NCBI GenBank assembly: GCA_944322785.1
Contig: CALUPW010000003.1
Coordinates: forward strand, 124,001-188,000
From: Candidatus Gastranaerophilales bacterium
GTDB taxonomy: Bacteria > Cyanobacteriota > Vampirovibrionia > Gastranaerophilales > Gastranaerophilaceae
Direction of reading: 5' to 3'
DNA: 64,000 bases
Numbering within the stretch: the stretch's first letter is position 1; each line of letters opens with the position of its first letter. Below are positions 3,413 to 50,075 of this stretch, piece by piece. The notes below the pieces were generated by a model that was not told where the DNA came from, searched no databases, and saw only the letters and a list, made by a program, of their open reading frames with translations. Both the position numbers and the translations under genes were made by a program.

Positions 3413-4510
3413 ATGGGTGATGAAGATAAACAGTATGACGCCACGCCCAGAAAACTGGAACAGGCTCGAAAAGAAGGTCAGGTTGTAAAATCAAAAGATT
3501 TTTCAACCGCAATTTCTCTGCTTATTTTATTTACGGCAATATACGCTCTTGCTCCTTTTATTTGGAATCAAATTTCCCAGCTTTTTACCCTGATGTATGA
3601 ACAGATTCCGAACACCCATCTTGATAAAATCGGTATGACTTATATATTTTCCGTTACAGTAAAAGCTGCAGCGCTTATTATAGGTCCGATTTTATTTTTA
3701 GCATGGCTTGTTGCAATTCTTGCTGATTTTATTCAGGTTGGTCCGCTTGTTGCAACAGCACCGCTTGCTCCAAAGCTCGACAAACTTAATCCGACAAAAT
3801 ATTTTAAAAATATTATGTCAATAAAAACTCTTTTTGAATTGTTTAAAAATATTGTAAAAGTTATTCTTCTGGGATACATCGGCTGGAGCGTTTATATGTC
3901 GCATATTGAACATATTATGATGCTTGCGGCAATTGATAACAACTTTGCGGTTATGATAGAATTCGGAAAACTTATTACTGAATTTATATTTAAAGCATGT
4001 ATCGCCTTCCTTGTAATTGCGGCTGCAGATTACGGCGTTACAAAATGGAAATTTCTGCAAGACCAGAAAATGTCTTTTAAAGAAATTAAAGACGAATACA
4101 AAAACACGGAAGGGGATCCGAATGTAAAAGCAGCCTTAAGACAAAGACGTATGCAGATGCTTCAAAGAGGAATGATGGACGCCGTACCGGATGCGGATTT
4201 TGTTGTAACAAACCCAATTCACATAGCCTGCGCATTAAAATACAAAGCTGAAGAAATGGATTCTCCTATGCTGATTGCAAAAGGTACGGAGTTAATTGCA
4301 AAAAAAATAATCACAATTGCGAAAGAGCACGATGTTCCTGTTATTGAAAATCCGCCTGTTGCCAGAGCTTTATTCAAAATGGTCGATTTAAACCAGCAGA
4401 TTCCGCCAGAATTGTATAAAGCAATCGCCGAAATTTTACTTTTTGTTTACAACTTGAAAAATAATCGCAACCAAAGTAGAATAAAGAAAGAGCCTCACAG
4501 TAAAAAATAA
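3413..4510 (+). CDS. flhB: Flagellar type III export apparatus protein FlhB
   Basis: A 365-residue FlhB/YscU-family protein. It sits in the flagellar export gate and switches substrate specificity after self-cleavage. The N-terminus has the typical DDKQ/ATPRKLEQARKEGQV segment, then four membrane segments (about residues 30-210), then the cytoplasmic domain. The self-cleavage site, usually NPTH, reads NPIH here (N267), so the cleaved N-P bond is kept but Thr is replaced by Ile. AAGGAAG precedes the ATG. A flagellar-type sigma factor starts 2 bases after the stop, which supports a flagellar rather than injectisome role. Other flagellar genes lie at 9390-11642. Confidence 0.93.
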   Translation: MGDEDKQYDATPRKLEQARKEGQVVKSKDFSTAISLLILFTAIYALAPFIWNQISQLFTLMYEQIPNTHLDKIGMTYIFSVTVKAAALIIGPILFLAWLVAILADFIQVGPLVATAPLAPKLDKLNPTKYFKNIMSIKTLFELFKNIVKVILLGYIGWSVYMSHIEHIMMLAAIDNNFAVMIEFGKLITEFIFKACIAFLVIAAADYGVTKWKFLQDQKMSFKEIKDEYKNTEGDPNVKAALRQRRMQMLQRGMMDAVPDADFVVTNPIHIACALKYKAEEMDSPMLIAKGTELIAKKIITIAKEHDVPVIENPPVARALFKMVDLNQQIPPELYKAIAEILLFVYNLKNNRNQSRIKKEPHSKK

Positions 4511-4512
4511 TC

Positions 4513-5172
4513 ATGATTATGCAGGAAAATAAATTACAAGAATATCTTGATATAGTTAAGAAAGTTGCGAAGGTTGAACACAGAAGAATTCCTTCTCATA
4601 TGGTGGAATATGAGGAACTGTTATCTATCGGCATCATTGCAATTCAGGCTATTATTAAAAACAAAACACCGGAACAGCTTGCAAGATACAATTCCGCATA
4701 TATAGCAACAGCCGTCAGATGGGCTATAAGAAACGAATTAAGAATAAGATATAAATGGTATTCATTAAAACACAAGCCTGACGATGAGATCGATCCCGAA
4801 GAAGAAGTTGAAGGCATGGATATGCAAAAGGCAAAAGTTCGTGAAGCTGTTTACGAAACCGTTTTGTCAATTGACGGGCTTGCGGCTGCCGCAAGCGACA
4901 ATGATTCACCTTTTGACTTTTTAAAAGATAATCACGCACTTCCTGATGAGCAGGCTGAAATTACAGAACTTGGCAGAATGATAAGGGCTGCAATATCAAA
5001 ACTTCCGCCGAAGGAAAGAACCGTTGTGGAATATCGTTTTTACAGAAATATGCAGGTAAAAGATATTGCAACTCAAATCGGACTTTCACCTTCAAGAGTA
5101 ACAAGGATTGTTCAATCGTCATTGAACTTTGTAAAAGAATACTTAAATTCGCATGAACAGTACGATTATTAA
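4513..5172 (+). CDS. fliA: Sigma-70 family factor, FliA (sigma-28)-like
   Basis: A 219-residue alternative sigma factor. Region 2 covers about residues 15-85 (EELLSIGIIAIQAI and AVRWAIRNELRIRYKW). Region 4 with its helix-turn-helix covers about 155-215 (LPPKERTVVEYRF, VKDIATQIGLSPSRVTRIVQ). There is no region 1.1, and the order and length fit group 3 (sporulation/flagellar) sigma factors. It starts 2 bases after flhB, so it is probably translated with flhB and directs late flagellar genes. The symbol is assigned mainly from this context; a general stress-type group 3 factor is the alternative. Two in-frame ATGs (4513 and 4519) are possible starts, both without a strong ribosome-binding site. 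Confidence 0.7.
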   Translation: MIMQENKLQEYLDIVKKVAKVEHRRIPSHMVEYEELLSIGIIAIQAIIKNKTPEQLARYNSAYIATAVRWAIRNELRIRYKWYSLKHKPDDEIDPEEEVEGMDMQKAKVREAVYETVLSIDGLAAAASDNDSPFDFLKDNHALPDEQAEITELGRMIRAAISKLPPKERTVVEYRFYRNMQVKDIATQIGLSPSRVTRIVQSSLNFVKEYLNSHEQYDY

Positions 5173-6725
5173 GCTTTAACGATTTTTACACGTTTATCGT
5201 CCCTAATTTCCAATGGTTTATCCATTTTTTTGATATATTCGCATGCCAGTTTGTTTTTATCAACATTGAATTTTTGGACTATGAAATCAGGATTTTCATT
5301 ACTTGGCAGATAATTATCTCCGCCCATTGCAAAGAAATCATCCATTGCACAGCTGAATTTTCTGTCAGGATTTGGATTTTTAACATCAATAGGATGTTCA
5401 ACACCGTTTTTGTCAGTATAATTTAGTGACAAAAGTTCACCTTTATCATTCATTGTATAATTCATGCCGGAAATTAAAAGAATTCCGGGTTTTGAATTGT
5501 GCGCAACAAGTGATTTTGCACCGACTTTAATGGCATCTACAATATCTTTTTCCGAAAGATTTCCTACAATCATTTTGTCTTCAAACGGGGTAATATCGTT
5601 TATCAAGCGGCTGTCGACTTTTCCGACATCAAAGTGCCCGCGGATATTGCCTGCATTTAAAATTGCAATTTCCGTACCAAGTTCATGCCGCATTGCATCA
5701 GCAATCAAATTTCCGTGAGGATTGTTTGCAATCAACCTGTTTTCAGGTTCCGGATCCGCATATTTTACAACACCCAAAACTTCAGGTTTTCCGAGGACTT
5801 CCTCAACTGCAGTTCTGGATGGTAGAGTTCTGTTAAATTTGCGGGTATTAATAACATTGTTTTGCACTTTTGTAATAACACCGTCATCAGTCCATTCTAC
5901 ATTTAAGACTCCGATATTTTCACCGTCTTTTCCTGCCTGCGTGATTACAACCGGTTCGCCGGATTTGGATGTTAAAAGGTTTTCGCCCGATTTTATGTCT
6001 TTGAGCATATCATGTGAATGTCCGCCAATAATTATATCAATACCTTCGGTTTCCTGCGCCAGACGTTTATCGCTCTTTAGCCCGCTGTGTGAAAGAACAA
6101 TTATTTTATTTATGCCTTGTGAACGAAGTCGATTAACTTCATCCTGAACCTTTTTAAGGGTCGTATTAAAATCATCTATTTTTATATCTTTTACAGAATC
6201 ATTCAATTTTACCCTTTCCGTCATATCTGAAGGGGCAATTCCGATAATACCGAATTTTTGTCCGTTATGTTCCTCGACGATTGATTTTCCGATACGTCCT
6301 GCCATAGGGCTTGAAGGTGATACCGTTGCATTTATTGCAAGAAGTTTGTAATCCGCATCCTTCATTAATTCGGCAAGTTTTGAAGGGACAACATCAAGCT
6401 CATGGTTTCCTAGTGCATTAGCCGAAACCCCTATCCAGTTAAGGAATTTGTTTGCCACCATATTGGATATAAAATTTGCTCCTAAAATAATATCACCGGA
6501 TGCAAGTTTTAATTTTGCGGTATTTTCACCCTTATTTGATTTGTCAAAAATATCTGAAACGGTTTTTATACGTTCCATATTTGTCATCTTACCGTGAACA
6601 TCATTCAGATAAAAAATACTCGTCTTTACAGGCGAGTTTGATTTTTGGGGTGATTTTTTATTATTTTCACCTGATACGTTTTGTTTTAACAAGTTTGTTT
6701 CAGGATATAAATTGTAATTCATCAT
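5169..6725 (-). CDS. 5'-nucleotidase/UshA-like metallophosphoesterase without signal peptide
   Basis: A 518-residue two-domain enzyme. A calcineurin-like metallophosphoesterase domain (about residues 35-290) carries NDVHGK, SGDIILG, GNHELD and GGHSHD metal-binding motifs. The C-terminal 5'-nucleotidase domain (about 320-510) has GNLIADAMRHE, LNAGNIRG and FAMGGDNYLP. The family hydrolyses nucleotides and nucleotide sugars, usually outside the cytoplasm. The ATG is chosen because AAGGTAA precedes it; a TTG at 6764 would add 13 residues. The N-terminus is polar and Asn/Ser/Lys-rich with no signal peptide, which is odd for this family and shared with the next gene upstream. The 3' end overlaps the sigma factor gene by 4 bases on the opposite strand. 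Confidence 0.85.
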   Translation of the reverse strand: MMNYNLYPETNLLKQNVSGENNKKSPQKSNSPVKTSIFYLNDVHGKMTNMERIKTVSDIFDKSNKGENTAKLKLASGDIILGANFISNMVANKFLNWIGVSANALGNHELDVVPSKLAELMKDADYKLLAINATVSPSSPMAGRIGKSIVEEHNGQKFGIIGIAPSDMTERVKLNDSVKDIKIDDFNTTLKKVQDEVNRLRSQGINKIIVLSHSGLKSDKRLAQETEGIDIIIGGHSHDMLKDIKSGENLLTSKSGEPVVITQAGKDGENIGVLNVEWTDDGVITKVQNNVINTRKFNRTLPSRTAVEEVLGKPEVLGVVKYADPEPENRLIANNPHGNLIADAMRHELGTEIAILNAGNIRGHFDVGKVDSRLINDITPFEDKMIVGNLSEKDIVDAIKVGAKSLVAHNSKPGILLISGMNYTMNDKGELLSLNYTDKNGVEHPIDVKNPNPDRKFSCAMDDFFAMGGDNYLPSNENPDFIVQKFNVDKNKLACEYIKKMDKPLEIRDDKRVKIVKA

Positions 6726-6804
6726 TTCATTTACCTTATTTCTGATATTTTTAACAACTGTCAAAATAAAAATTGCTTTATTTTAATATTTTTGTAAAGA
6801 AGGT

Positions 6805-8223
6805 TTAAGCCGCATTGTTTTTAGGAGGCGATTTTTTCATTTCGTTGTACGATTTTAAACCTTCAACCCAGTTTTCAACGAACTTGATATCTTCTTTTAC
6901 TACTGATTGCGGCAAACCGGCATGATGAATTTTCGGCAGTAAATATTCTGCAGTATATTCAATTGCATGCGGAATATCATCATCTGTATCATTGCAAATA
7001 AATATCAATCTGCCGTCTTTGTCGTATCTTTGTCCGATAATTGTTATTTCATGCCCGTTAATAATTTCATTGTTATTGTCCACCTCAGTATATCCGATAA
7101 TTACGTTCTCGCCCATATTTAGAGCATCAGATATCTGCCGTTTCATAGTTTCAAAATCAGTTTCATATCCGACTAATCTTTCATTATCATCAACAGTTTG
7201 ATAAGTTACCGAAACTTTGTTTTTATCCTCAACAACAGATTCTGTAAAAGTCTTTTCAAATTCAATCAGCCCTTTGTCTTTCATATTGAATTTTCCTTTG
7301 CGAATATCGCTTAAAGAATCATACGTCTGCTGTGACCCTATCTGCATTAAGGTTGACTGCATTAAGACGTCAACTGATGACCTTTCGTTTGCATCCCTGT
7401 TTGTAACCTGCATTCTCGCTCTTAAAATTGCATTTTTATCGGGCGCAAAAGTCAAATGCGCATTATTAAAGTTGTCCATTTTAAACGGAACTTCAAATGC
7501 ATTCAAAAGCCATATTGAATCAAGCGTGTTGTCAGTCAAATTTTTTAATTGAATGGTCTTTGTAACAGACATTTTTGGTGAACTTATCCCTTCAACAAAC
7601 CTTGCAAATTCGGCAGGCATTTTTTTTGCAAGATTAAACTCTATACTGGATGCAACACAAGTTCCTGAATGCTCAACATTTATATCGAGTTCTGCGAGTT
7701 TTCGGGGAATAAGTTTGTCTTTATTCATTTTGTTGTCATCCATATATTTGTCTACAAAAGCTGAATTCAGACTTTTCGGAATATCTCCAAATTGCTGTGT
7801 TATACTATACGGATTATTCAGTATTTCTATTGTATCTTTTAATATCACATCATTCGGAAGTCCTGCTGCTCTGTCATTAATTGCAATTTTATAAAGATTG
7901 TCAAGTACTGTTGAATTATCATTTGAATTTGCATTCAAAAGAATCCCTGTTTTCAAAAGGTCTTTCATCTGTTTACGTGAATTTTTGTCCAATTTTTCTG
8001 AAATTGTATTATATTTATTTTTTTCTTCACTGCTTGAAAGTCGGGTTCGCACCGCTGACGCCCTAAAAGCCGGATTATAAGAAATTTTGTTACTTACCGG
8101 ATTTGAGGCAGGCTGATTTGATTGAACTTTATTATTTTGTTCAATATTTTTTACATCTGCGGACTTTATGTTATCCGTTGTGATATAATTATGTTGAAAA
8201 GAATTTAAACCTACCGAATACAC
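6805..8223 (-). CDS. Putative papain-fold cysteine peptidase
   Basis: A 472-residue protein with no family I can name with certainty. Residues 1-80 are polar and low-complexity (Asn/Ser/Lys), then comes a helical stretch. The C-terminal half shows a possible papain-like triad: Cys189 in SGTCVASSIEF (compare GxCWAFS), His391 in INGHEITIIGQ and Asn411/Asp412 in FICNDTDDD, each in the expected order and sequence setting. No signal peptide is visible. The start is a GTG at 8223 preceded by GGAGTGA; the N-terminus then reads MYSVGLNSFQ. It carries the NPAFRA element (50-55) resembling short N-terminal motifs in other proteins here. It is likely cotranscribed with the phosphoesterase 79 bases downstream. 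Confidence 0.5.
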   Translation of the reverse strand: MYSVGLNSFQHNYITTDNIKSADVKNIEQNNKVQSNQPASNPVSNKISYNPAFRASAVRTRLSSSEEKNKYNTISEKLDKNSRKQMKDLLKTGILLNANSNDNSTVLDNLYKIAINDRAAGLPNDVILKDTIEILNNPYSITQQFGDIPKSLNSAFVDKYMDDNKMNKDKLIPRKLAELDINVEHSGTCVASSIEFNLAKKMPAEFARFVEGISSPKMSVTKTIQLKNLTDNTLDSIWLLNAFEVPFKMDNFNNAHLTFAPDKNAILRARMQVTNRDANERSSVDVLMQSTLMQIGSQQTYDSLSDIRKGKFNMKDKGLIEFEKTFTESVVEDKNKVSVTYQTVDDNERLVGYETDFETMKRQISDALNMGENVIIGYTEVDNNNEIINGHEITIIGQRYDKDGRLIFICNDTDDDIPHAIEYTAEYLLPKIHHAGLPQSVVKEDIKFVENWVEGLKSYNEMKKSPPKNNAA

Positions 8224-8316
8224 TACTGTTCACTCCGCTTATTTATATAAACAACACAGTCCGAAAAAAATTGCTACAAAACTAAAAAAACAGTTAACAA
8301 ATGTAACGAGGAAATA

Positions 8317-9318
8317 TTGGAAAAAATTAAAATTAAACCTTTAACAAAAGACCAGCTTATAATTTCAATTGACAGACTTACACGGTTTAAAAATACGGAA
8401 GTTAAATATTTGAGGGTATTTAAAGAGATAATTCTTTCTAATCTTATACTGCCGAAATTCAAAAAACAGGAGCTTGACGGAATTGATTATACTGTCTTAA
8501 GAAATTTTGCAGAAAGAATAATAAACTATTCGCTAGAAAGTTTTGATATAAAACAGGACGGCGATTTAGAAATTAATCAAAGATTGTTTGACTATGAAAA
8601 AAACATATTTTTGCTATCCGAACAAACGGAAAGTCTTTTAAAAAATAAAATTAACTATAAAGGTTTTTTAAAACTTCTTTCTGATAATGAAGTTAAAAAT
8701 CTATTGTGGCTGAATGAATTAAATAAAACAGATGATATTATCCAATCCCGACAACAAAAATCACTTCATTTTCCTGTCGAAAAGGTAATTATCTGTGAAG
8801 GCATAACGGAGGAAACGCTTCTTCCTGTTTTTGCTGAAATTTACGGTTATGATTTTGATAAAAACGGCATCCACATAATCTCTGCAGGAGGCAAAAATCA
8901 GGTAGTTAAAAATTATTATGAACTTTCGGACTGTTTAAAAATTCCGATATTCGTGCTTTTTGACAGCGATGCCGGAGAAAATTTAAAATCTATACAAAAA
9001 AAATTGAGGCCTTTTGATATGGTGTATATATTGAAAAACGGTGAATTTGAAGATATTTTGCCGTATTCTTTGATTGAAAAAACTCTTCTTTATGTATTCA
9101 AAAATATATCTCTAATTGATTTAAAAGAATTGGATGAAAGTGCGCCGAGAGTAAAAGTTCTTGAAGAAATTTTTAAAAACCGCGGACTTCATGAATTTAA
9201 AAAATCCGAATTTGCAAATCTTGTAAAAGATAATATTCAAGACAAAAACGACCTTTCCGGAGAAATCATTGAAATACTTGAAAATATAAAATCTATCCGG
9301 ATGCCTAATATTACATAA
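8317..9318 (+). CDS. Stand-alone OLD-type TOPRIM domain protein
   Basis: A 333-residue protein with a helical N-terminal part (1-150) and a TOPRIM domain at about 155-240. The TOPRIM acidic residues are visible: EGITEE (E161, E165) and FDSDAG (D216, D218), with the ISAGGKNQV block between them typical of OLD-family nucleases. OLD proteins normally begin with an ABC ATPase domain, which is absent here: there is no Walker A or ABC signature. The start is a TTG preceded by GAGGA. No partner ATPase gene adjoins it. It may be a nuclease or primase-like protein in DNA repair or defence; the exact role is unknown. Confidence 0.65.
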   Translation: MEKIKIKPLTKDQLIISIDRLTRFKNTEVKYLRVFKEIILSNLILPKFKKQELDGIDYTVLRNFAERIINYSLESFDIKQDGDLEINQRLFDYEKNIFLLSEQTESLLKNKINYKGFLKLLSDNEVKNLLWLNELNKTDDIIQSRQQKSLHFPVEKVIICEGITEETLLPVFAEIYGYDFDKNGIHIISAGGKNQVVKNYYELSDCLKIPIFVLFDSDAGENLKSIQKKLRPFDMVYILKNGEFEDILPYSLIEKTLLYVFKNISLIDLKELDESAPRVKVLEEIFKNRGLHEFKKSEFANLVKDNIQDKNDLSGEIIEILENIKSIRMPNIT

Positions 9319-9389: not shown

Positions 9390-10226
9390 CTAACTTCCGA
9401 CTAACCTCAAAGCTTCTTCAAGAAGCTCTTTGTTGGTTGAGATAAGTTTGTTTGAAATTTCCATCTGGAGTTTTGCCATCTGGAAGTATGAAATATTACC
9501 TTTAAAATCAGCGTTTGACATTTCAAGAAGTCCCGAACGGATTTGACCGTAACCCAATACCGGCTTTCCGGATTCTTCGGTTTCAATAAAATACCCTTCT
9601 TTGATTTCATAAAGTGCTGCTGCATTATGGAAATTTCTTGTAGTTATACGGTAAAGAGGAATTGTGCGTTTGCCGCCGTCTGCTTTTCCGTATATTGTAC
9701 CGTCCTCTTTAATTTCATAATCGTCATATTTGCCGAGGTATTTGCCGTTACTCGGGTCAATCCACATTTTTATGTTTGTTGTCGGAATATCAAGAGAGCC
9801 TCCTTTAAGAGCAGTCTGCTCATATAAATCCTGTGAAACGGATTTTGTTCCCTGCATTATTTCACCTTTGTCATTCAGGATATACCCTTGAACCGTATTA
9901 CCGTTTTTAGCACGATAAACACCTTCGCCGTCAAATGTAAATTCGCCCAGTCTTGTATAAACACTTTTACCTTCCGGTGTTTTTGTGAGGAAAAAGCCTT
10001 TACCTTCTAAAAAGAGGTTGTCATTTGAAGTTCCCGGTGTTGACTTGCCCTGTCCTGTTTTTTTATCATAGTCATCAGCTATTGCACCGCCCAGAAAGGT
10101 TTTAAAATTCACCTGCTGTTCTCGGAAGCCCGGCGTATATATATTTGTCATATTATGAGCAATGACATCCATCCAGTTCTGGGTTGATTTCTGTGTATTT
10201 AAGGCTGTAACGTATGAATCATTCAT
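9390..10226 (-). CDS. Flagellar hook-basal body protein (FlgF/FlgG-like)
   Basis: A 278-residue rod/hook family protein. The N-terminal rod signature is NTQKSTQNWMDVIAHNMTNIYTPGFRE (given here in two parts: residues about 8-22 and 23-34). The middle shows the LFLEGKGFF and TRLGEFTFDGEGVY blocks of FlgF/G, and the C-terminal helix (LLEMSNADF, MAKLQMEISNKLISTNKELL) completes the family layout. The start is the ATG preceded by AGGAGA, 11 codons inside the longest frame. It overlaps the end of fliK by 8 bases and is the last gene of a fliJ-fliK-flgF/G-like operon. FlgE is less likely because the protein is short. Confidence 0.8.
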   Translation of the reverse strand: MNDSYVTALNTQKSTQNWMDVIAHNMTNIYTPGFREQQVNFKTFLGGAIADDYDKKTGQGKSTPGTSNDNLFLEGKGFFLTKTPEGKSVYTRLGEFTFDGEGVYRAKNGNTVQGYILNDKGEIMQGTKSVSQDLYEQTALKGGSLDIPTTNIKMWIDPSNGKYLGKYDDYEIKEDGTIYGKADGGKRTIPLYRITTRNFHNAAALYEIKEGYFIETEESGKPVLGYGQIRSGLLEMSNADFKGNISYFQMAKLQMEISNKLISTNKELLEEALRLVGS

Positions 10227-11157
10227 TATTGTTCTCCTTGTTATTACGTTTTTCCTCATCCTGATTTTGACGTTTGTGTCTGCTGTAAGTTAATTCGTTA
10301 TACGGCAGATTCTGCTCGTCAAATCTCTGTCTTAAATATGAAATATTATTTTTTAAATAAGCTTCAACTGCTTTATCTCCGGGGATAAAATTTGCATTCA
10401 GATTTCCGTCTTTATCCACACGCATAACAACAGAAACATCTTTATCAAAGTCAATACGAAAAGATTTTCCTGTTTTCATGGAATCCGCCAGCGCATCTAA
10501 CAAAACTGAGGAAACTTTTGCTGTTTTTTGAATATTTTGAACATTACCTGCAGAGAGTTCTTTTTTAAATTCTCCTGCAATACTCTGCATAGACATATCT
10601 GTTTTTGTTACAAGATTTGCGAAAAACAGAGCATCCCCTTCTGTCATTGAAAATCTGCTGTAATCAATTGCAGGAGATGAAGTATAAACATCTTCATTTA
10701 TACTTGCAGCAAATTTCTGATTTTGAATATTATTAACATCACCGATACGCCCGTTCAGTTTTAATATTGAATTTATCTCATCGGAAAGCTCGGCTGATGC
10801 TTGATTTTGCTGATTTTGACCGTTATTCTGCTGATTATTTTGCTGTCCATTTTGTTTTTCATCATTTTTCAGCTGATTTTCTTGTTTGTTATCTTGTTTT
10901 TCTGTTTTTTCTCCGGTTGTTGTTTCAGCTTTCTTATCATTATCAACGGAATTGTCTTCGTTTAAATCTTCAGTACGTTCGTCATTTTTTAAATCAGATG
11001 AAACTTCAGCATCAGTATTTTCCGATTTTACGTTTGAAGAAATTGAATTTAACTGGGACTTAAACGCATTATTACCGGTAAGTTTTGACACCTGCGACGA
11101 TAAAATATTACTTTTTATATCACTACCTGCTGACACTGTTGATGTATCTATATTCAT
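10219..11157 (-). CDS. fliK: Flagellar hook-length control protein FliK
   Basis: A 312-residue protein with the layout of FliK. The N-terminal half (about 1-135) is a polar, Asn/Gln/Glu/Lys-rich linker with Q-N runs. The C-terminal domain (about 215-300) carries FRIDFDKDVSVVMRVDKDG and a following helix, matching the Flg_hook domain that touches FlhB to switch export from hook to filament subunits. Its ATG overlaps the stop of fliJ in an ATGA arrangement, so the two are translationally coupled. The N-terminal composition alone would not identify it; the call rests on the C-terminal domain and the operon. Confidence 0.8.
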   Translation of the reverse strand: MNIDTSTVSAGSDIKSNILSSQVSKLTGNNAFKSQLNSISSNVKSENTDAEVSSDLKNDERTEDLNEDNSVDNDKKAETTTGEKTEKQDNKQENQLKNDEKQNGQQNNQQNNGQNQQNQASAELSDEINSILKLNGRIGDVNNIQNQKFAASINEDVYTSSPAIDYSRFSMTEGDALFFANLVTKTDMSMQSIAGEFKKELSAGNVQNIQKTAKVSSVLLDALADSMKTGKSFRIDFDKDVSVVMRVDKDGNLNANFIPGDKAVEAYLKNNISYLRQRFDEQNLPYNELTYSRHKRQNQDEEKRNNKENNNE

Positions 11158-11642
11158 TGTTCCTCCAGCTCTTGAAGCTGTTTTAACAGTTCTAACTCTT
11201 CTTCTTCCAGTCTTTCGTTTGACTGGCGGAAAAACCTTTGCACACCCAGTTCTGAATATCCTTTCAATTCAGCTTTTTTTTCTTCTTCAAGGTATGCTTC
11301 TTTGTTTTTTTCTTTGTGTTTTTCCAGAACCTTTACCGCCTGCTCCAACTTGACAAGTTTTGCTTTTTCAATATCAAGTATTCTTTGAGCCTCCGCTCGG
11401 ATTTGCTCCAGTTGTTCTGCCTTTTCCCACAAATGTATAAGATATTTGTCATATATGTCATACATAAGCGGGTCTGCCTTTCGCATATTTATCTGCGTAT
11501 CTCGAATTTCTTCGTTATTTTTGCGAATGTTCTCTTCTGCAATAAACACTGCCTGCTGCGCCTTTTGAACAACAAGAAGCTGTTCTTCTTTTTTACGGAT
11601 TCTAAAGTCCAGTACTTTCTGCAGTCGATATCTAAAAGGCAT
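11154..11642 (-). CDS. fliJ: Flagellar export chaperone FliJ
   Basis: A 162-residue, almost entirely coiled-coil protein starting with MPFRYRLQKVLDFR, the typical FliJ opening. FliJ is a soluble part of the flagellar export ATPase complex and helps energise export. Length and heptad pattern (residues about 15-155) fit. It is the first gene of a tight operon: its stop overlaps the fliK start. No strong ribosome-binding site precedes its ATG. The upstream fliF-fliI genes are not in the window. Confidence 0.85.
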   Translation of the reverse strand: MPFRYRLQKVLDFRIRKKEEQLLVVQKAQQAVFIAEENIRKNNEEIRDTQINMRKADPLMYDIYDKYLIHLWEKAEQLEQIRAEAQRILDIEKAKLVKLEQAVKVLEKHKEKNKEAYLEEEKKAELKGYSELGVQRFFRQSNERLEEEELELLKQLQELEEQ

Positions 11643-46677: not shown

Positions 46678-47265
46678 ATGGAAACTTTTTTACAAATTGC
46701 AGAACGAAATCAAAAAACAGCTTATAAAATAATTAAAGATTTAAAAATAGAAAGTTTGTATAAAGATATCGGATGCGAAATTAATCTTGTAGGTTCTTTA
46801 AAATCCGGACTTTTAATGAAACATCTTGATATTGATTTTCATGTTTATTCTGATGTGGTAGAAATTAAAGAGAGTTTTCTTATTATTTTAAAAATTGTTA
46901 AAAATCCGTCGGTTACAAAATTTACCTTTAAAAATCTTTTAAATACGGATGAAAACTGTCTTGAGTGGCATATATTTTATAAAGATAAATTTGACAAAAT
47001 CTGGCAGATTGATATTATTCATATGCCTGAAAAGTCTAAATATCACGGATATTTTGAGCATGTTACGGAGCGGATTTCATCTATTTTGACAGATGAAATG
47101 AGATATAAAATTTTAAAGTTAAAATATGAAACGCCTGATGATATAAAAATCGCAGGAATTGAATATTATCGTGCTGTAATTGAGGGTGGTATTTCAACGT
47201 ATAATGATTTTATGAATTGGCGAAAAGAACTTCCGTCAATCGGAATAATTGAATGGTGCCCTTAG
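46678..47265 (+). CDS. Nucleotidyltransferase-fold protein
   Basis: A 195-residue protein. NLVGSLKSGLLMKHLDIDFHVYS (about 38-60) matches the GS-x(n)-DxD core of the nucleotidyltransferase fold, and WQIDIIHM (about 109-116) supplies a possible third Asp. No other domain is evident. It starts 23 bases after tRNA-Lys with no ribosome-binding site and may be read from the same promoter. Substrate is unknown. It overlaps the end of the glycosyltransferase gene by 4 bases on the opposite strand. Confidence 0.6.
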   Translation: METFLQIAERNQKTAYKIIKDLKIESLYKDIGCEINLVGSLKSGLLMKHLDIDFHVYSDVVEIKESFLIILKIVKNPSVTKFTFKNLLNTDENCLEWHIFYKDKFDKIWQIDIIHMPEKSKYHGYFEHVTERISSILTDEMRYKILKLKYETPDDIKIAGIEYYRAVIEGGISTYNDFMNWRKELPSIGIIEWCP

Positions 47266-50075
47266 TTTGGTTGATTTGCGGCTTCTTCCGTTTTTGTATC
47301 ATTCTTTTTAACTTTTGAAAAATACCAAGCACCGCCGCCAATTGCCGCAACCGCAATTCCGCTTCCGAAAGCAAGGATTTTACCGGCTTTTGAAGTTTTT
47401 GCACTGTTTTGAATATTACTATTTTCCTTTATTGAATTAGTAACAGTTTCTTTAATTTCTTCTGCAACCTTTTGTTTCATATCTATCAAAGAATCTTTAG
47501 CCTGCGCAACAATTTCATCAGATGCTGTTTTTATACGCTCAATAGCTTTTTCAACAGTCTCGCCTGCTGCTTTTTGAAGGGTTTCTTCTATTGTTTTTAT
47601 TATCAATGCAGCTTTTTCATCCAGCTTTTTACTGATAGAATTAAAAGAATTTTCAAGTTCTTCTAAAGCATCCTGAATAGCTTCCTGCGGATTTAAAAAT
47701 CTGCCTACAAGACGCTTGAAAGGTTTTTGATTTCTTGTTTCCCAGCCCTGATCTATTTTCCAGATATCATTTCTGTACATTTTGTTGGCTGATTTTCCTT
47801 TGTTAAATTCATCATTGTTATGCCAGTCAAAATGTTCCTCTATATTTTTTTTGCATTTTGCAATATATTCAGTTCTGTTGTTTGCATATTCCTCAACCAT
47901 TTCTTTTAAACAGTCAGAAACTTCATCAGATACTCTTTCAATTCTTTTGGCTTCAACCACGTCCTTCGGTGTATTCCAATCAAGCTCATCAAATTGCGGA
48001 TTCATTTCCGGAGCGGTTCTTGTTAGCCACCCGTTTGATTTATTTGTATAATCTACAGGTCCGCCGGTTGCTGTTGATAGATACGGAACACCTGCAGCTT
48101 TAGCTTCAAGCGGTGTAATCCCGCACATCTCTCGTCTGGAGGTGAAGGCACCATGTGTAGCGCATCCGACAAGCAGGTTCGGGAAGAATCCATCAACATA
48201 CATTGCATTATGTTTATATTTTCCGCCGTCAAGTTCCGCAATTTCTTTTAATAATTCTTTAATCATTTTAAAATCAGGAGCGTCCTTAGCCCAAGGAGCA
48301 TCTCCGGCTCCATTTAGCAATTTGACTTTAAGTTTTAATTCATCGGGAACGTCCGTACGTTTTAAAAATTTTAAAAAGCCTTTATACAGAATCGGATAAC
48401 CTTTTTGTTCATCAGCTCTGCCCCAGCCCATTATAAGCATTTCGTCTTTTTTGAAGCGTGACAAACTGCCGAATACACTCCGGCCTTCCTCAATCTGTTT
48501 TTCGTTAAAAAATACGTGATTAAGCGCCTCCTGACCTTCTTTTGCCGCATCTTCAATAATACCTGTCAGCCATTCGGCATTTTTCATTCTGTTCGCAACA
48601 ACTTCTTCAATGTTGCCGTCTTTATAAATAATCGGTGTAAATCCGTCTTTATGCTCGGTAAGTCCGTTTGAACCACGTCCGATTTTTTTAGGCATTTTAT
48701 CAATCCCGAGTGACGCCGGAGTTGAACCGTTAAGAGGACTTATTGTTTTAATTTCTCTTAAATCTCCGCCTATATTTGGCGCAACGTCCATTTGAGGATT
48801 TTTCATTTCTTTGTCAAAATTCGGCGATACTGTTCCGAATGAAGTATTTTCTGCGTTGGTTTTAGCAGAAACTATCGCAATTTTTGTAATATTATAGTTA
48901 CCGGAAAAATCTCTGAATTTACCAATTATCGGCGCAAAAAGTTTATGCACAAAAGCCTGTTCCTCTTTGCTTAGATGATCCCAGCCTCTGCTGTTATACC
49001 ATTCAAGCAGCTCATATTCCGGCAGTTCTCTTAAGGCTTTAACATCATCTGCATCAAAAATTACCCTTGCAAATTCAAATGGATTTGCTGTTCCACCCTG
49101 ATAATTTACGCCTGTATTGTGTGCTGTAAAGTGAGAAATTGTTCCGTTATAATAATCATCGCCGCCGGCAGACATACTTGCGAGATGACTGAAAAGTGTA
49201 GCTATGGGTCTGTCATGTCCCCATAAATTTGCGGGCTTCCAAAAACCGAATTCTTTTGTATTCATCATTTTTTCAGCTTGCAAATAAGCACGGCAAAAAT
49301 CGGAATTTATAATTTCCGCTTCAATTCCCCCATGACCATTTGCACTGTATGTGTAAGGTTTTGGGGTTTTTGCAAGTTCTCTTGTCCATATCCAGTAATT
49401 CGGTTTGTCTTTAATTACGTTATATGAAGGATTGTCTTCTGAAATCTTAAAAATCTCAAACGGAACCTTTTGTGTTTCGCCGAGTTTCATATCGGACATT
49501 CTTTCTATTTCACCTTTTATTCCGGTCGGTTCAATAAGGCAATATCTGGATTTACTGTTTGCATCTTTACCGTTTGGTGCACTTTGTATTACATATCTAA
49601 GGTCTTCAGGATTACATTTTAATGCAGCGGCAAATTCTTCTCGAGTCTGTCCGTAATCTGCACTTAAAAACCATTTGGCTTCAATTTCTTCCGGAAGTTT
49701 GCCGTCAATTAATTCTAAATCTTTAGTCATTAAGAATTTGTAGCCGCCTTTGGGATTGTTATATTCATGCGCAGGCATAAAACTTCTTACGTCCAGATCT
49801 TCTTTTTCAATCATGCTTTTGGGCGCCTCATAGGTCACAACACCCAGCCCGCCCTGATAATCCTCAGCCAAGCCTGTACCCTTATTTTCGTATGCCAGCG
49901 ACGCAATTTGTTTTATATTGCGGTCAATACCCGTAAACGTTAACCTTGCAAGTCGAGGAGTAAAACTTACTGTGTCGGCTTGTGCTGCAAAACTGCTTCT
50001 GATGTTTTGTTCATTAATTTTTCGGCTTGAGTTTGCCCGATAAATATTTCGAGGCTTGATTGCTTCTACACGCAT
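47262..50075 (-). CDS. Starch/glycogen-synthase-like (GT5) enzyme with C-terminal membrane anchor
   Basis: A 937-residue protein. The N-terminus (1-50) is polar, without signal peptide. The GT5-like region runs about 55-730: TGLAEDYQGGLGVVTYE (compare KTGGLGDV), ISHFTAHNTGVNYQG (compare FTIHNLAYQG), IAIVSAKTNAE, and REMCGITPLEAKAAG (compare EPCGLTQLEA) with ATGGPVDYT. Residues about 795-890 form a coiled coil with regular Glu/Lys/Ala heptads, and about 900-922 form one membrane helix near the end, followed by a short polar tail. Catalytic motifs are divergent, so activity is uncertain. AAAGGA precedes the ATG. Confidence 0.7.
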   Translation of the reverse strand: MRVEAIKPRNIYRANSSRKINEQNIRSSFAAQADTVSFTPRLARLTFTGIDRNIKQIASLAYENKGTGLAEDYQGGLGVVTYEAPKSMIEKEDLDVRSFMPAHEYNNPKGGYKFLMTKDLELIDGKLPEEIEAKWFLSADYGQTREEFAAALKCNPEDLRYVIQSAPNGKDANSKSRYCLIEPTGIKGEIERMSDMKLGETQKVPFEIFKISEDNPSYNVIKDKPNYWIWTRELAKTPKPYTYSANGHGGIEAEIINSDFCRAYLQAEKMMNTKEFGFWKPANLWGHDRPIATLFSHLASMSAGGDDYYNGTISHFTAHNTGVNYQGGTANPFEFARVIFDADDVKALRELPEYELLEWYNSRGWDHLSKEEQAFVHKLFAPIIGKFRDFSGNYNITKIAIVSAKTNAENTSFGTVSPNFDKEMKNPQMDVAPNIGGDLREIKTISPLNGSTPASLGIDKMPKKIGRGSNGLTEHKDGFTPIIYKDGNIEEVVANRMKNAEWLTGIIEDAAKEGQEALNHVFFNEKQIEEGRSVFGSLSRFKKDEMLIMGWGRADEQKGYPILYKGFLKFLKRTDVPDELKLKVKLLNGAGDAPWAKDAPDFKMIKELLKEIAELDGGKYKHNAMYVDGFFPNLLVGCATHGAFTSRREMCGITPLEAKAAGVPYLSTATGGPVDYTNKSNGWLTRTAPEMNPQFDELDWNTPKDVVEAKRIERVSDEVSDCLKEMVEEYANNRTEYIAKCKKNIEEHFDWHNNDEFNKGKSANKMYRNDIWKIDQGWETRNQKPFKRLVGRFLNPQEAIQDALEELENSFNSISKKLDEKAALIIKTIEETLQKAAGETVEKAIERIKTASDEIVAQAKDSLIDMKQKVAEEIKETVTNSIKENSNIQNSAKTSKAGKILAFGSGIAVAAIGGGAWYFSKVKKNDTKTEEAANQPN

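What the first reader, a model, noticed from the sequence alone, without database searches (positions are those of the whole stretch)
6805..8223. Possible papain-fold peptidase without a signal peptide
Cys189, His391 and Asn411 are in the right order and local setting for a papain-like triad, yet overall the protein is unfamiliar. It sits beside an UshA-like phosphoesterase that also lacks the usual signal peptide, and both have polar N-termini. They may be exported by an unusual route.
Basis: inference. Interest (0 to 1): 0.5.

Follow-up and report, generated by a model that had tools for sequence, protein, structure and literature searches.

The report
New papain-like peptidase in gut bacteria
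A gene kept by nearly all gut relatives of cyanobacteria that were searched (Gastranaerophilales) appears to encode an undescribed papain-like cysteine peptidase without an ordinary export signal, often placed beside a gene of a second, flagellum-like export machine that is also kept by species without flagellin.

Summary
The ORF at 8223..6805 (minus strand, 472 aa, GTG start) is real; 278 of 286 genomes of its order carry a relative. It has no Pfam, NCBIfam or PDB sequence match. Papain-like is the best reading. In 52 distinct aligned sequences Cys189 and His391 are invariant wherever covered. In two low-confidence models the His-bearing half matches mainly papain-like peptidases; the first 30 rows for the second model are all of that kind. 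Two of 30 members hit Peptidase_C39_2 below cut-off.

Neither this protein nor the UshA-like neighbour has a hydrophobic N-terminal signal. The pair lies beside flhB in 22 of 27 genomes. That flhB appears to belong to a second flagellar-type export set: the 18 flagellin-bearing relatives checked (of 43 found) all hold a divergent FlhB and a second FlhA besides an FlhA like the window genome's. Export by this system is plausible but unproven. Nothing here shows catalysis.

The parts
6805..8223 (-). Papain-like peptidase ORF, 472 aa, GTG start
   Evidence: the ORF listing; 278 of 286 genomes of the order have a relative
8233..8236 (-). Likely Shine-Dalgarno GGAG before the GTG start
   Evidence: Sequence read; GGAG at about the same place in 11 of 13 related contigs
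8053..8223 (-). Residues 1-57: polar, low-confidence N-terminal stretch without a signal peptide
   Evidence: pLDDT below 50; hydropathy maximum 0.03
7816..8040 (-). Residues 62-136: conserved helical domain before the catalytic domain
   Evidence: Residue blocks 61-140 of the model have mean pLDDT 75-94; helices 65-75, 80-91, 106-115, 124-136; matched in distant relatives
6904..7806 (-). Residues 140-440: papain-like domain
   Evidence: VIA-align rows; low model confidence
7657..7659 (-). Cys189 codon, proposed nucleophile (context HSGTCVASS)
   Evidence: Cys in 51 of 51 distinct covering sequences
7051..7053 (-). His391 codon, proposed catalytic base (NGHEITI)
   Evidence: His in 52 of 52 distinct sequences
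6988..6990 (-). Asp412 codon, proposed third residue
   Evidence: Asp 50, Asn 2 of 52 distinct sequences
6991..6993 (-).
   Evidence: Asn in 33 of 33 close and 0 of 19 distant distinct sequences
7795..7797 (-). Gln143 codon, invariant; possible oxyanion-hole residue (inference)
   Evidence: Gln in 51 of 51 distinct covering sequences
5169..6764 (-). UshA-like phosphoesterase without signal peptide, same strand downstream; start probably at an ATG near 6722-6725 by comparison with relatives
   Evidence: within 3 kb of the peptidase gene in 22 of 27 genomes
3413..4510 (+). flhB, read as part of a second flagellar-type export set
   Evidence: Pfam Bac_export_2 (FlhB/YscU family) E 2e-115; one copy in 27 of 28 genomes of the family; separate divergent FlhB in flagellin-bearing relatives
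4513..5172 (+). Sigma factor (Sigma70_r4)
8317..9318 (+). OLD-like TOPRIM protein
9390..10259 (-). FlgE/F/G-like rod or hook protein
   Evidence: Pfam PF22692 E 6e-10
10219..11157 (-). FliK-like protein
   Evidence: PF02120 E 1e-4, below cut-off
11154..11642 (-). FliJ-like protein
   Evidence: PF02050 E 0.0014, below cut-off

Best explanation
The ORF encodes a papain-like (clan CA type) cysteine peptidase of an undescribed family. It is built as a polar, probably disordered leader (1-57), a conserved helical domain (62-136) that may act as a propeptide-like inhibitory or docking domain (inference), and a catalytic domain (140-440). Cys189 would attack the substrate, His391 would activate it, and Asp412 (Asn in two relatives), not Asn411, would orient the His. 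The gene is near-universal in the Gastranaerophilales genomes searched and present in related families, and in the window's clade it usually sits with a signal-less UshA-like phosphoesterase beside flhB of what looks like a second, filament-less flagellar-type export system. Shown: the ORF, conservation, lack of a hydrophobic signal, and linkage. Supported but not proven: the papain-like fold and the domain layout. Inferred: catalysis, the role of the helical domain, and any functional tie to the export system.
For: Among 52 distinct sequences Cys189 51 of 51 covering, His391 52 of 52, Asp412 Asp in 50 and Asn in 2, Gln143 51 of 51 covering. In 30 diverse members the invariant columns include C189, H391, D414 and Q143, with D412 at 90% or more. 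VIA-align of the second model: rows 1-30 are all papain-like by their titles, with several entries of the same protein, Z 5.0-6.7, rmsd 2.2-4.5 over 64-96 residues; for the top row the range is residues 355-435. Pfam Peptidase_C39_2 in L031 (E 0.005, profile 59-142 of 143) and L052 (E 0.0079, profile 82-138), 2 of 30 members. Near-core distribution: 278 of 286, 44 of 97 in the class. Linkage to UshA and flhB: 22 of 27.
Against: Both models are poor: mean pLDDT 54.5, pTM 0.50, and 45.9, 0.32. Foldseek gave no match at E <= 0.001, and all VIA Z are below 8, a range the tool warns may mean only a common arrangement; only the His-bearing half is matched, and unrelated chains (YkuJ, chromodomains, PafBC) are mixed in. 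The two models use the same 13 sequences, so they are not independent. C39_2 hits are below the curated cut-off of 24 bits, and the window protein itself has none. One relative also hits C1q at E 0.0028 over the same half, and another Sortase at 0.048. A profile of 30 members found no papain-like PDB sequence. No substrate, activity or expression data exist here.
Confidence: 0.72

Rival explanations
1. The peptidase and the UshA-like enzyme are cargo of the second flagellar-type export system and leave the cell through its FlhA/FlhB gate using their polar N-termini.
For: No hydrophobic signal in either; gene triplet with flhB in 22 of 27 genomes; FlgE/F/G-like, FliK-like and FliJ-like genes nearby; all 44 peptidase-bearing genomes of the class sample have a FlhA-family match (only partial ones in G044), against 26 of 53 without it; the system is kept without flagellin or FliD.
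Against: A near-universal gene, mostly one match per genome, is unlike a typical effector. The linkage is absent in 5 of 27 genomes, and in 7 of 7 flagellin-bearing genomes where both positions are known (G075, G080, G083, G086, G090, G092, G096) the peptidase gene and the matching flhB lie on different contigs. FlhA-bearing families f10-f12 lack the peptidase. Co-occurrence follows clades, so the Fisher value is not independent evidence. No export signal can be tested here.
Confidence: 0.25
2. It is a cytosolic housekeeping peptidase or transpeptidase unrelated to the export system, and its neighbours are incidental.
For: Near-universal, mostly one match per genome; no hydrophobic signal; other neighbours in distant relatives, such as EPSP-synthase-like and PlsC-like genes (recognised by eye).
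Against: Maintained triplet with flhB in 22 of 27 genomes.
Confidence: 0.35
3. It is a papain-like fold that has lost peptidase activity and works as a binding protein or scaffold.
For: Nothing direct.
Against: Cys and His unchanged in every covering sequence, down to relatives 21-30% identical, which a dead enzyme would not need to keep.
Confidence: 0.1
4. The fold is not papain-like; Cys and His are conserved for another reason, such as metal binding or a different thiol enzyme.
For: Low model confidence; no significant Foldseek match; weak hits to unrelated families, such as C1q and Sortase.
Against: Agreement of VIA rows on papain-like chains and two sub-threshold C39_2 hits.
Confidence: 0.15
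5. It removes N-terminal leaders from proteins of this genome with an N-terminal [VIP][NS]F-x-[GA] motif, in the manner of C39 leader peptidases.
For: The motif is enriched in the first 60 residues, 23 of 95,589 positions against 17 of 382,959 later; the signal-less UshA relative in L005 carries a looser form, SPFKG.
Against: A sample of a peptidase-bearing distant genome (G287) has 2 hits in 341 ORFs, too few to decide either way. The first, wider pattern showed no enrichment. The final pattern was chosen after seeing the genome list.
Confidence: 0.05

Closest known systems
Peptidase_C39_2 (Pfam PF13529) and bacterial C39-type peptidases
   Same: Sub-threshold profile match over the His-Asp half in two relatives; order Cys, His, Asp (order in C39 recalled)
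   Different: Below cut-off; 472 aa with a helical N-terminal domain; no fused transporter domain was found by Pfam
C10/C1-type papain-like peptidases (SpeB, interpain A, staphopain, cathepsins)
   Same: Best structural rows for the His-bearing half, Z up to 6.7
   Different: Those named enter the secretory route with signal peptides (recalled); Asp rather than Asn at the third position in 50 of 52; no sequence match to any PDB chain at E <= 10 for the single sequence
Phytochelatin synthase-type papain-like transpeptidase (Alr0975)
   Same: Rows with Z 4.2-4.3; the CVAS stretch resembles CGPAS (recalled)
   Different: No sequence match; different length and domains
Buchnera filament-less flagellar basal bodies
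   Same: Flagellar-type export genes kept, role unknown (abstract of PMC8109811)
   Different: Here a second FlhA/FlhB set seems distinct from the flagellar set of flagellin-bearing relatives

Membership tests
Papain-like (clan CA) cysteine peptidase | Cys before His in sequence, both invariant | tested here: met
   Cys 51 of 51 covering, His 52 of 52
Papain-like (clan CA) cysteine peptidase | Third residue Asn or Asp after the His, at the end of the next strand | tested here: met
   residue 412 Asp 50, Asn 2; model strand 406-412, (low-confidence model). Asn411 fails
Papain-like (clan CA) cysteine peptidase | Papain-like fold | tested here: inconclusive
   Best rows papain-like but Z below 8 and models poor
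Papain-like (clan CA) cysteine peptidase | Three residues in one pocket | not testable with these tools
   No model coordinates given; Cys region low confidence
Papain-like (clan CA) cysteine peptidase | Thiol-dependent peptidase activity | not testable with these tools
   Needs an assay
Peptidase_C39_2 (PF13529) | Profile score over the curated cut-off (24 bits) | tested here: not met
   17.9 and 17.2 bits in 2 of 30 members, none in the window protein
C1 papain family | Sequence match to the Pfam C1 model | tested here: not met
   Not among the 16 families hit by 30 members at E <= 10 (HMMER filters drop most weak matches)
C58 (YopT/AvrPphB) family | Sequence match to the Pfam model | tested here: not met
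   Not among the 16 families hit by 30 members at E <= 10 (same caution)
Type III (flagellar-type) export substrate | Export depends on the FlhA/FlhB gate | not testable with these tools
   Only linkage and missing signal shown
UshA (neighbour) | NCBIfam equivalog cut-off for UshA (600 bits) | tested here: not met
   81.3 bits; metallophosphatase and 5'-nucleotidase C-terminal domains present

The most novel reading that the evidence does not exclude
Gastranaerophilales and related families carry, besides or instead of the flagellum, a second, filament-less flagellar-type export machine that secretes enzymes without Sec signals; the papain-like peptidase and the UshA-like phosphoesterase are its conserved cargo. 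The incomplete flagella reported in gut Melainabacteria would then be this second machine, not a decaying flagellum.
Probability: 0.22. Interest if true: 0.75.

Novelty: new member of a known kind. Interest (0 to 1): 0.48.

Why it matters
It describes a near-core enzyme, without a Pfam or NCBIfam match, of a gut order, and gives testable catalytic residues. The linked observation of a second FlhA/FlhB set offers a different reading of the partial flagella reported in these bacteria: Di Rienzi et al. 2013 wrote that genome reduction may be ongoing (passages seen) and Soo et al. 2014 of loss of functional flagella (passages seen).

Tried and rejected
Asn411 as catalytic residue: rejected by the alignment. 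A leftover flagellum as the only explanation of flhB: made unlikely, because 18 of 18 flagellin-bearing genomes of the order that I checked (chosen by me for spread, of 43 found) hold an FlhA 70-85% identical to the window genome's and a second one (38-41% in 17; in G075 two pieces in one frame, 47% and 33%), and 15 of 18 hold two FlhB, the other three (G002, G019, G085) only the divergent one. Those three have the peptidase, so the peptidase can be found where the matching FlhB was not seen; they do have the matching FlhA.

Leader-processing role: no support beyond a shared motif. My first, wider pattern showed 15, 15, 15 and 8 hits in successive 40-residue bins of 319 ORFs, no enrichment. 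A narrower pattern (tested) is enriched 5.4-fold, p 2e-7, and 5.5-fold, p 4e-6, in stretches not seen, but I had seen the whole list before choosing it, so this is not a true held-out test. The reversed pattern gave 4 hits in the N-terminal part and 14 later, no enrichment. A looser form is in 55 of 1370 proteins at the N-terminus against 28 in a window of the same size further in; an unbiased triplet scan did not bring the motif up.

Viral contigs: 46 stretches matched a pattern, none a relative. Profile search of the PDB with 30 members: 7 hits, best E 0.061, none papain-like. C39 chains are not named in the VIA rows shown; this proves nothing. The second structure job, on the domain alone, gave a worse model. 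Searching the phylum with the profile found 9 genomes outside the class with weak matches, mostly to the helical domain; not followed, as no more letters could be had.

Literature: full-text searches 'Gastranaerophilales' + 'flagell' + 'secretion' (13 papers), 'Melainabacteria' + 'type III secretion' (3), 'Gastranaerophilales' + same (2), 'Vampirovibrion' + same (2), 'Melainabacteria' + 'flagell' + 'FlhA' (1), 'Gastranaerophilales' + 'peptidase' (14, 10 listed), 'Buchnera' + 'flagellar basal bod' + 'protein export' (10, 8 listed). No listed title is about a type III system or a papain-like peptidase of these bacteria. Of the type III hits I read passages of PMC7018530 only. Seen otherwise: passages of PMC3787301, PMC4040986, PMC4451040 and PMC5877343, and the abstract of PMC8109811. 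Only open-licence papers are held.

Full report
1. The observation. The ORF at 8223..6805 on the minus strand is 472 aa with a GTG start and GGAG upstream (GGAG precedes the start in 11 of 13 related contigs). The frame is open for only two codons more (474 aa), so no longer N-terminus with a signal peptide is hidden. The protein has no Pfam hit at E <= 5, no NCBIfam hit and no PDB sequence hit at E <= 10. Contigs with close relatives are titled Candidatus Gastranaerophilales in 10 of 13 cases.

2. Distribution. A relative is found in 278 of 286 genomes of the order, 50 of 50 genera, in most rows with one match, and in 44 of 97 genomes of the class: 27 of 28 of the window's family and 17 of the 18 in f9, f14 and f15, none in f8 and f10-f13. 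The one miss in the family, G047, also lacks flhB and has one UshA-like match where most have two, so the locus is probably missing from that assembly. A profile of 30 members found weaker matches, mostly to the helical domain, in 9 further genomes of the phylum, five separate places in one of them.

3. Catalytic residues. The alignment has 61 rows: 42 close (the window's included) and 19 distant. Nine close rows repeat another row exactly, because two tools fetched the same genome, which leaves 52 distinct sequences. In these Cys189 is Cys in all 51 that cover it, His391 is His in all 52, Asp412 is Asp in 50 and Asn in 2, Asp414 is Asp in 52, Asp415 in 51, Gln143 is Gln in 51 of 51 covering, while Asn411 is Asn in the 33 close and in none of the 19 distant sequences. 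One related sequence, L002, was left out because of a stop in its frame. Asp412, interchanging with Asn, is the better third residue; Asp414 is not excluded.

4. Fold. AlphaFold2 with 13 sequences gave mean pLDDT 54.5 and pTM 0.50; the domain alone gave 45.9 and 0.32. Foldseek had no match at E <= 0.001. For the second model rows 1-30 are all papain-like by their titles (several are the same protein), Z 5.0-6.7, and from row 31 unrelated chains appear among further papain-like ones at Z 5.0 and below. Only the His-bearing half is matched. Two of 30 members have Peptidase_C39_2 hits at E 0.005 and 0.0079, below the cut-off. The tool warns that Z under 8 may mean only a common arrangement. I therefore hold the fold as likely, not shown.

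5. Neighbourhood. In the window the order is flhB (Pfam Bac_export_2, E 2e-115), a sigma factor, the UshA-like gene, the peptidase gene, an OLD-like gene, a FlgE/F/G-like gene, a FliK-like gene and a FliJ-like gene (the FliK and FliJ hits are below cut-off). In 8 of 8 related contigs that I examined of 13 (L002, L004-L006, L008, L009, L011, L014) peptidase, UshA, sigma and flhB lie together. In the class sample the peptidase gene is within 3 kb of a UshA-like gene and within 6 kb of flhB in 22 of 27 genomes of the family; the five without are G014, G035, G039, G041 and G046 (from positions). In seven flagellin-bearing genomes of the order the two genes lie on different contigs, and in the distant relatives the neighbours differ.

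6. Signal peptides. Neither protein has a hydrophobic N-terminal segment. The UshA-like neighbours in eight related contigs also begin with polar sequences, judged by eye. UshA itself is periplasmic (recalled), which makes this unusual.

7. A second flagellar-type export system. In the family, 0 of 28 genomes have flagellin, 27 of 28 have a full-length FlhA (G044 has only partial matches) and 27 of 28 have one FlhB at 84-100% identity to the window's. In a larger order sample 43 of 117 have flagellin. Of those 43 I checked 18, chosen for spread over genera: all 18 have an FlhA 70-85% identical to the window genome's and a second FlhA (38-41% in 17; two pieces in one frame in G075); all 18 have an FlhB 32-40% identical, and 15 also one 62-76% identical. 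FliD_N is absent in the 6 flagellin-less genomes tested and in G003, and present in 15 of 22. The window genome has FliE, FliF, FliH and FlhA in one stretch. So the window's flhB seems to belong to a set that coexists with a separate flagellar set in relatives and is kept alone where flagellin is absent; which set builds the flagellum is inferred from this. The papers seen treat these as incomplete or lost flagella (passages of PMC3787301 and PMC4040986; PMC5877343). This is an inference from identities and counts; no tree was made.

8. Mechanism. Most likely: a papain-like peptidase with a Cys189-His391-Asp412 triad, a helical domain possibly acting as propeptide, and a polar leader. Whether it is exported, and by which route, is open. 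Near-universal conservation speaks for a core role rather than a variable effector; linkage to flhB and absence of a signal speak for a tie to the second export system. Co-occurrence with FlhA (44 of 44 against 26 of 53) follows clades and is weak evidence.

9. Novelty. A new family of a known kind (papain-like peptidases), with the bolder reading given in the section on the most novel reading.

Noticed in passing
window 3413-4510; G000:C7:84709-86814: FlhB and FlhA of what looks like a second flagellar-type export set, coexisting with a divergent set in flagellin-bearing genomes: FlhA in 18 of 18 checked (one in pieces), FlhB in 15 of 18.
   Followed up: partly
G000, e.g. C8:34715-35851, C10:36942-41432, C3:32615-34279; looser form in window 47262-50075: Proteins with an N-terminal [VIP][NS]F-x-[GA] motif, enriched 5.4-fold in the first 60 residues (pattern chosen after viewing; the set includes chance matches). 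Domains differ, e.g. Amidohydro_2 and HNH; several have no Pfam match.
   Followed up: partly
window 5169-6764 and relatives: In the class sample the UshA-like neighbour varies from 71% to 42% identity to the window's at the same place while flhB stays at 84-94%, and 25 of 28 genomes of the family hold two or more UshA-like matches.
   Followed up: no
G000:C10:78034-79131 and similar: Frames of 478-519 aa that match only the C-terminal half of FlhA, in 19 of 19 genomes of the order.
   Followed up: no
G000:C7:71984-73573 and C5:77253-78713: Two related proteins of 529 and 486 aa beginning MGMAASQAR, one upstream of the FliE-FliF-FlhA genes, without Pfam match; possible cargo or axial protein of the second system.
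   Followed up: partly
G000:C7:82817-83881: A 354-aa protein without a Pfam match over cut-off stands between FliF and FliH, where FliG would be expected.
   Followed up: no
G365, G373, G381, G383 and five other genomes: Other families of the phylum have proteins that weakly match the helical domain of the peptidase, five separate places in G365.
   Followed up: no
L054:6370-6828 and 7080-7538: Two 152-aa ORFs whose printed first 110 residues are the same, downstream of a distant peptidase relative.
   Followed up: no
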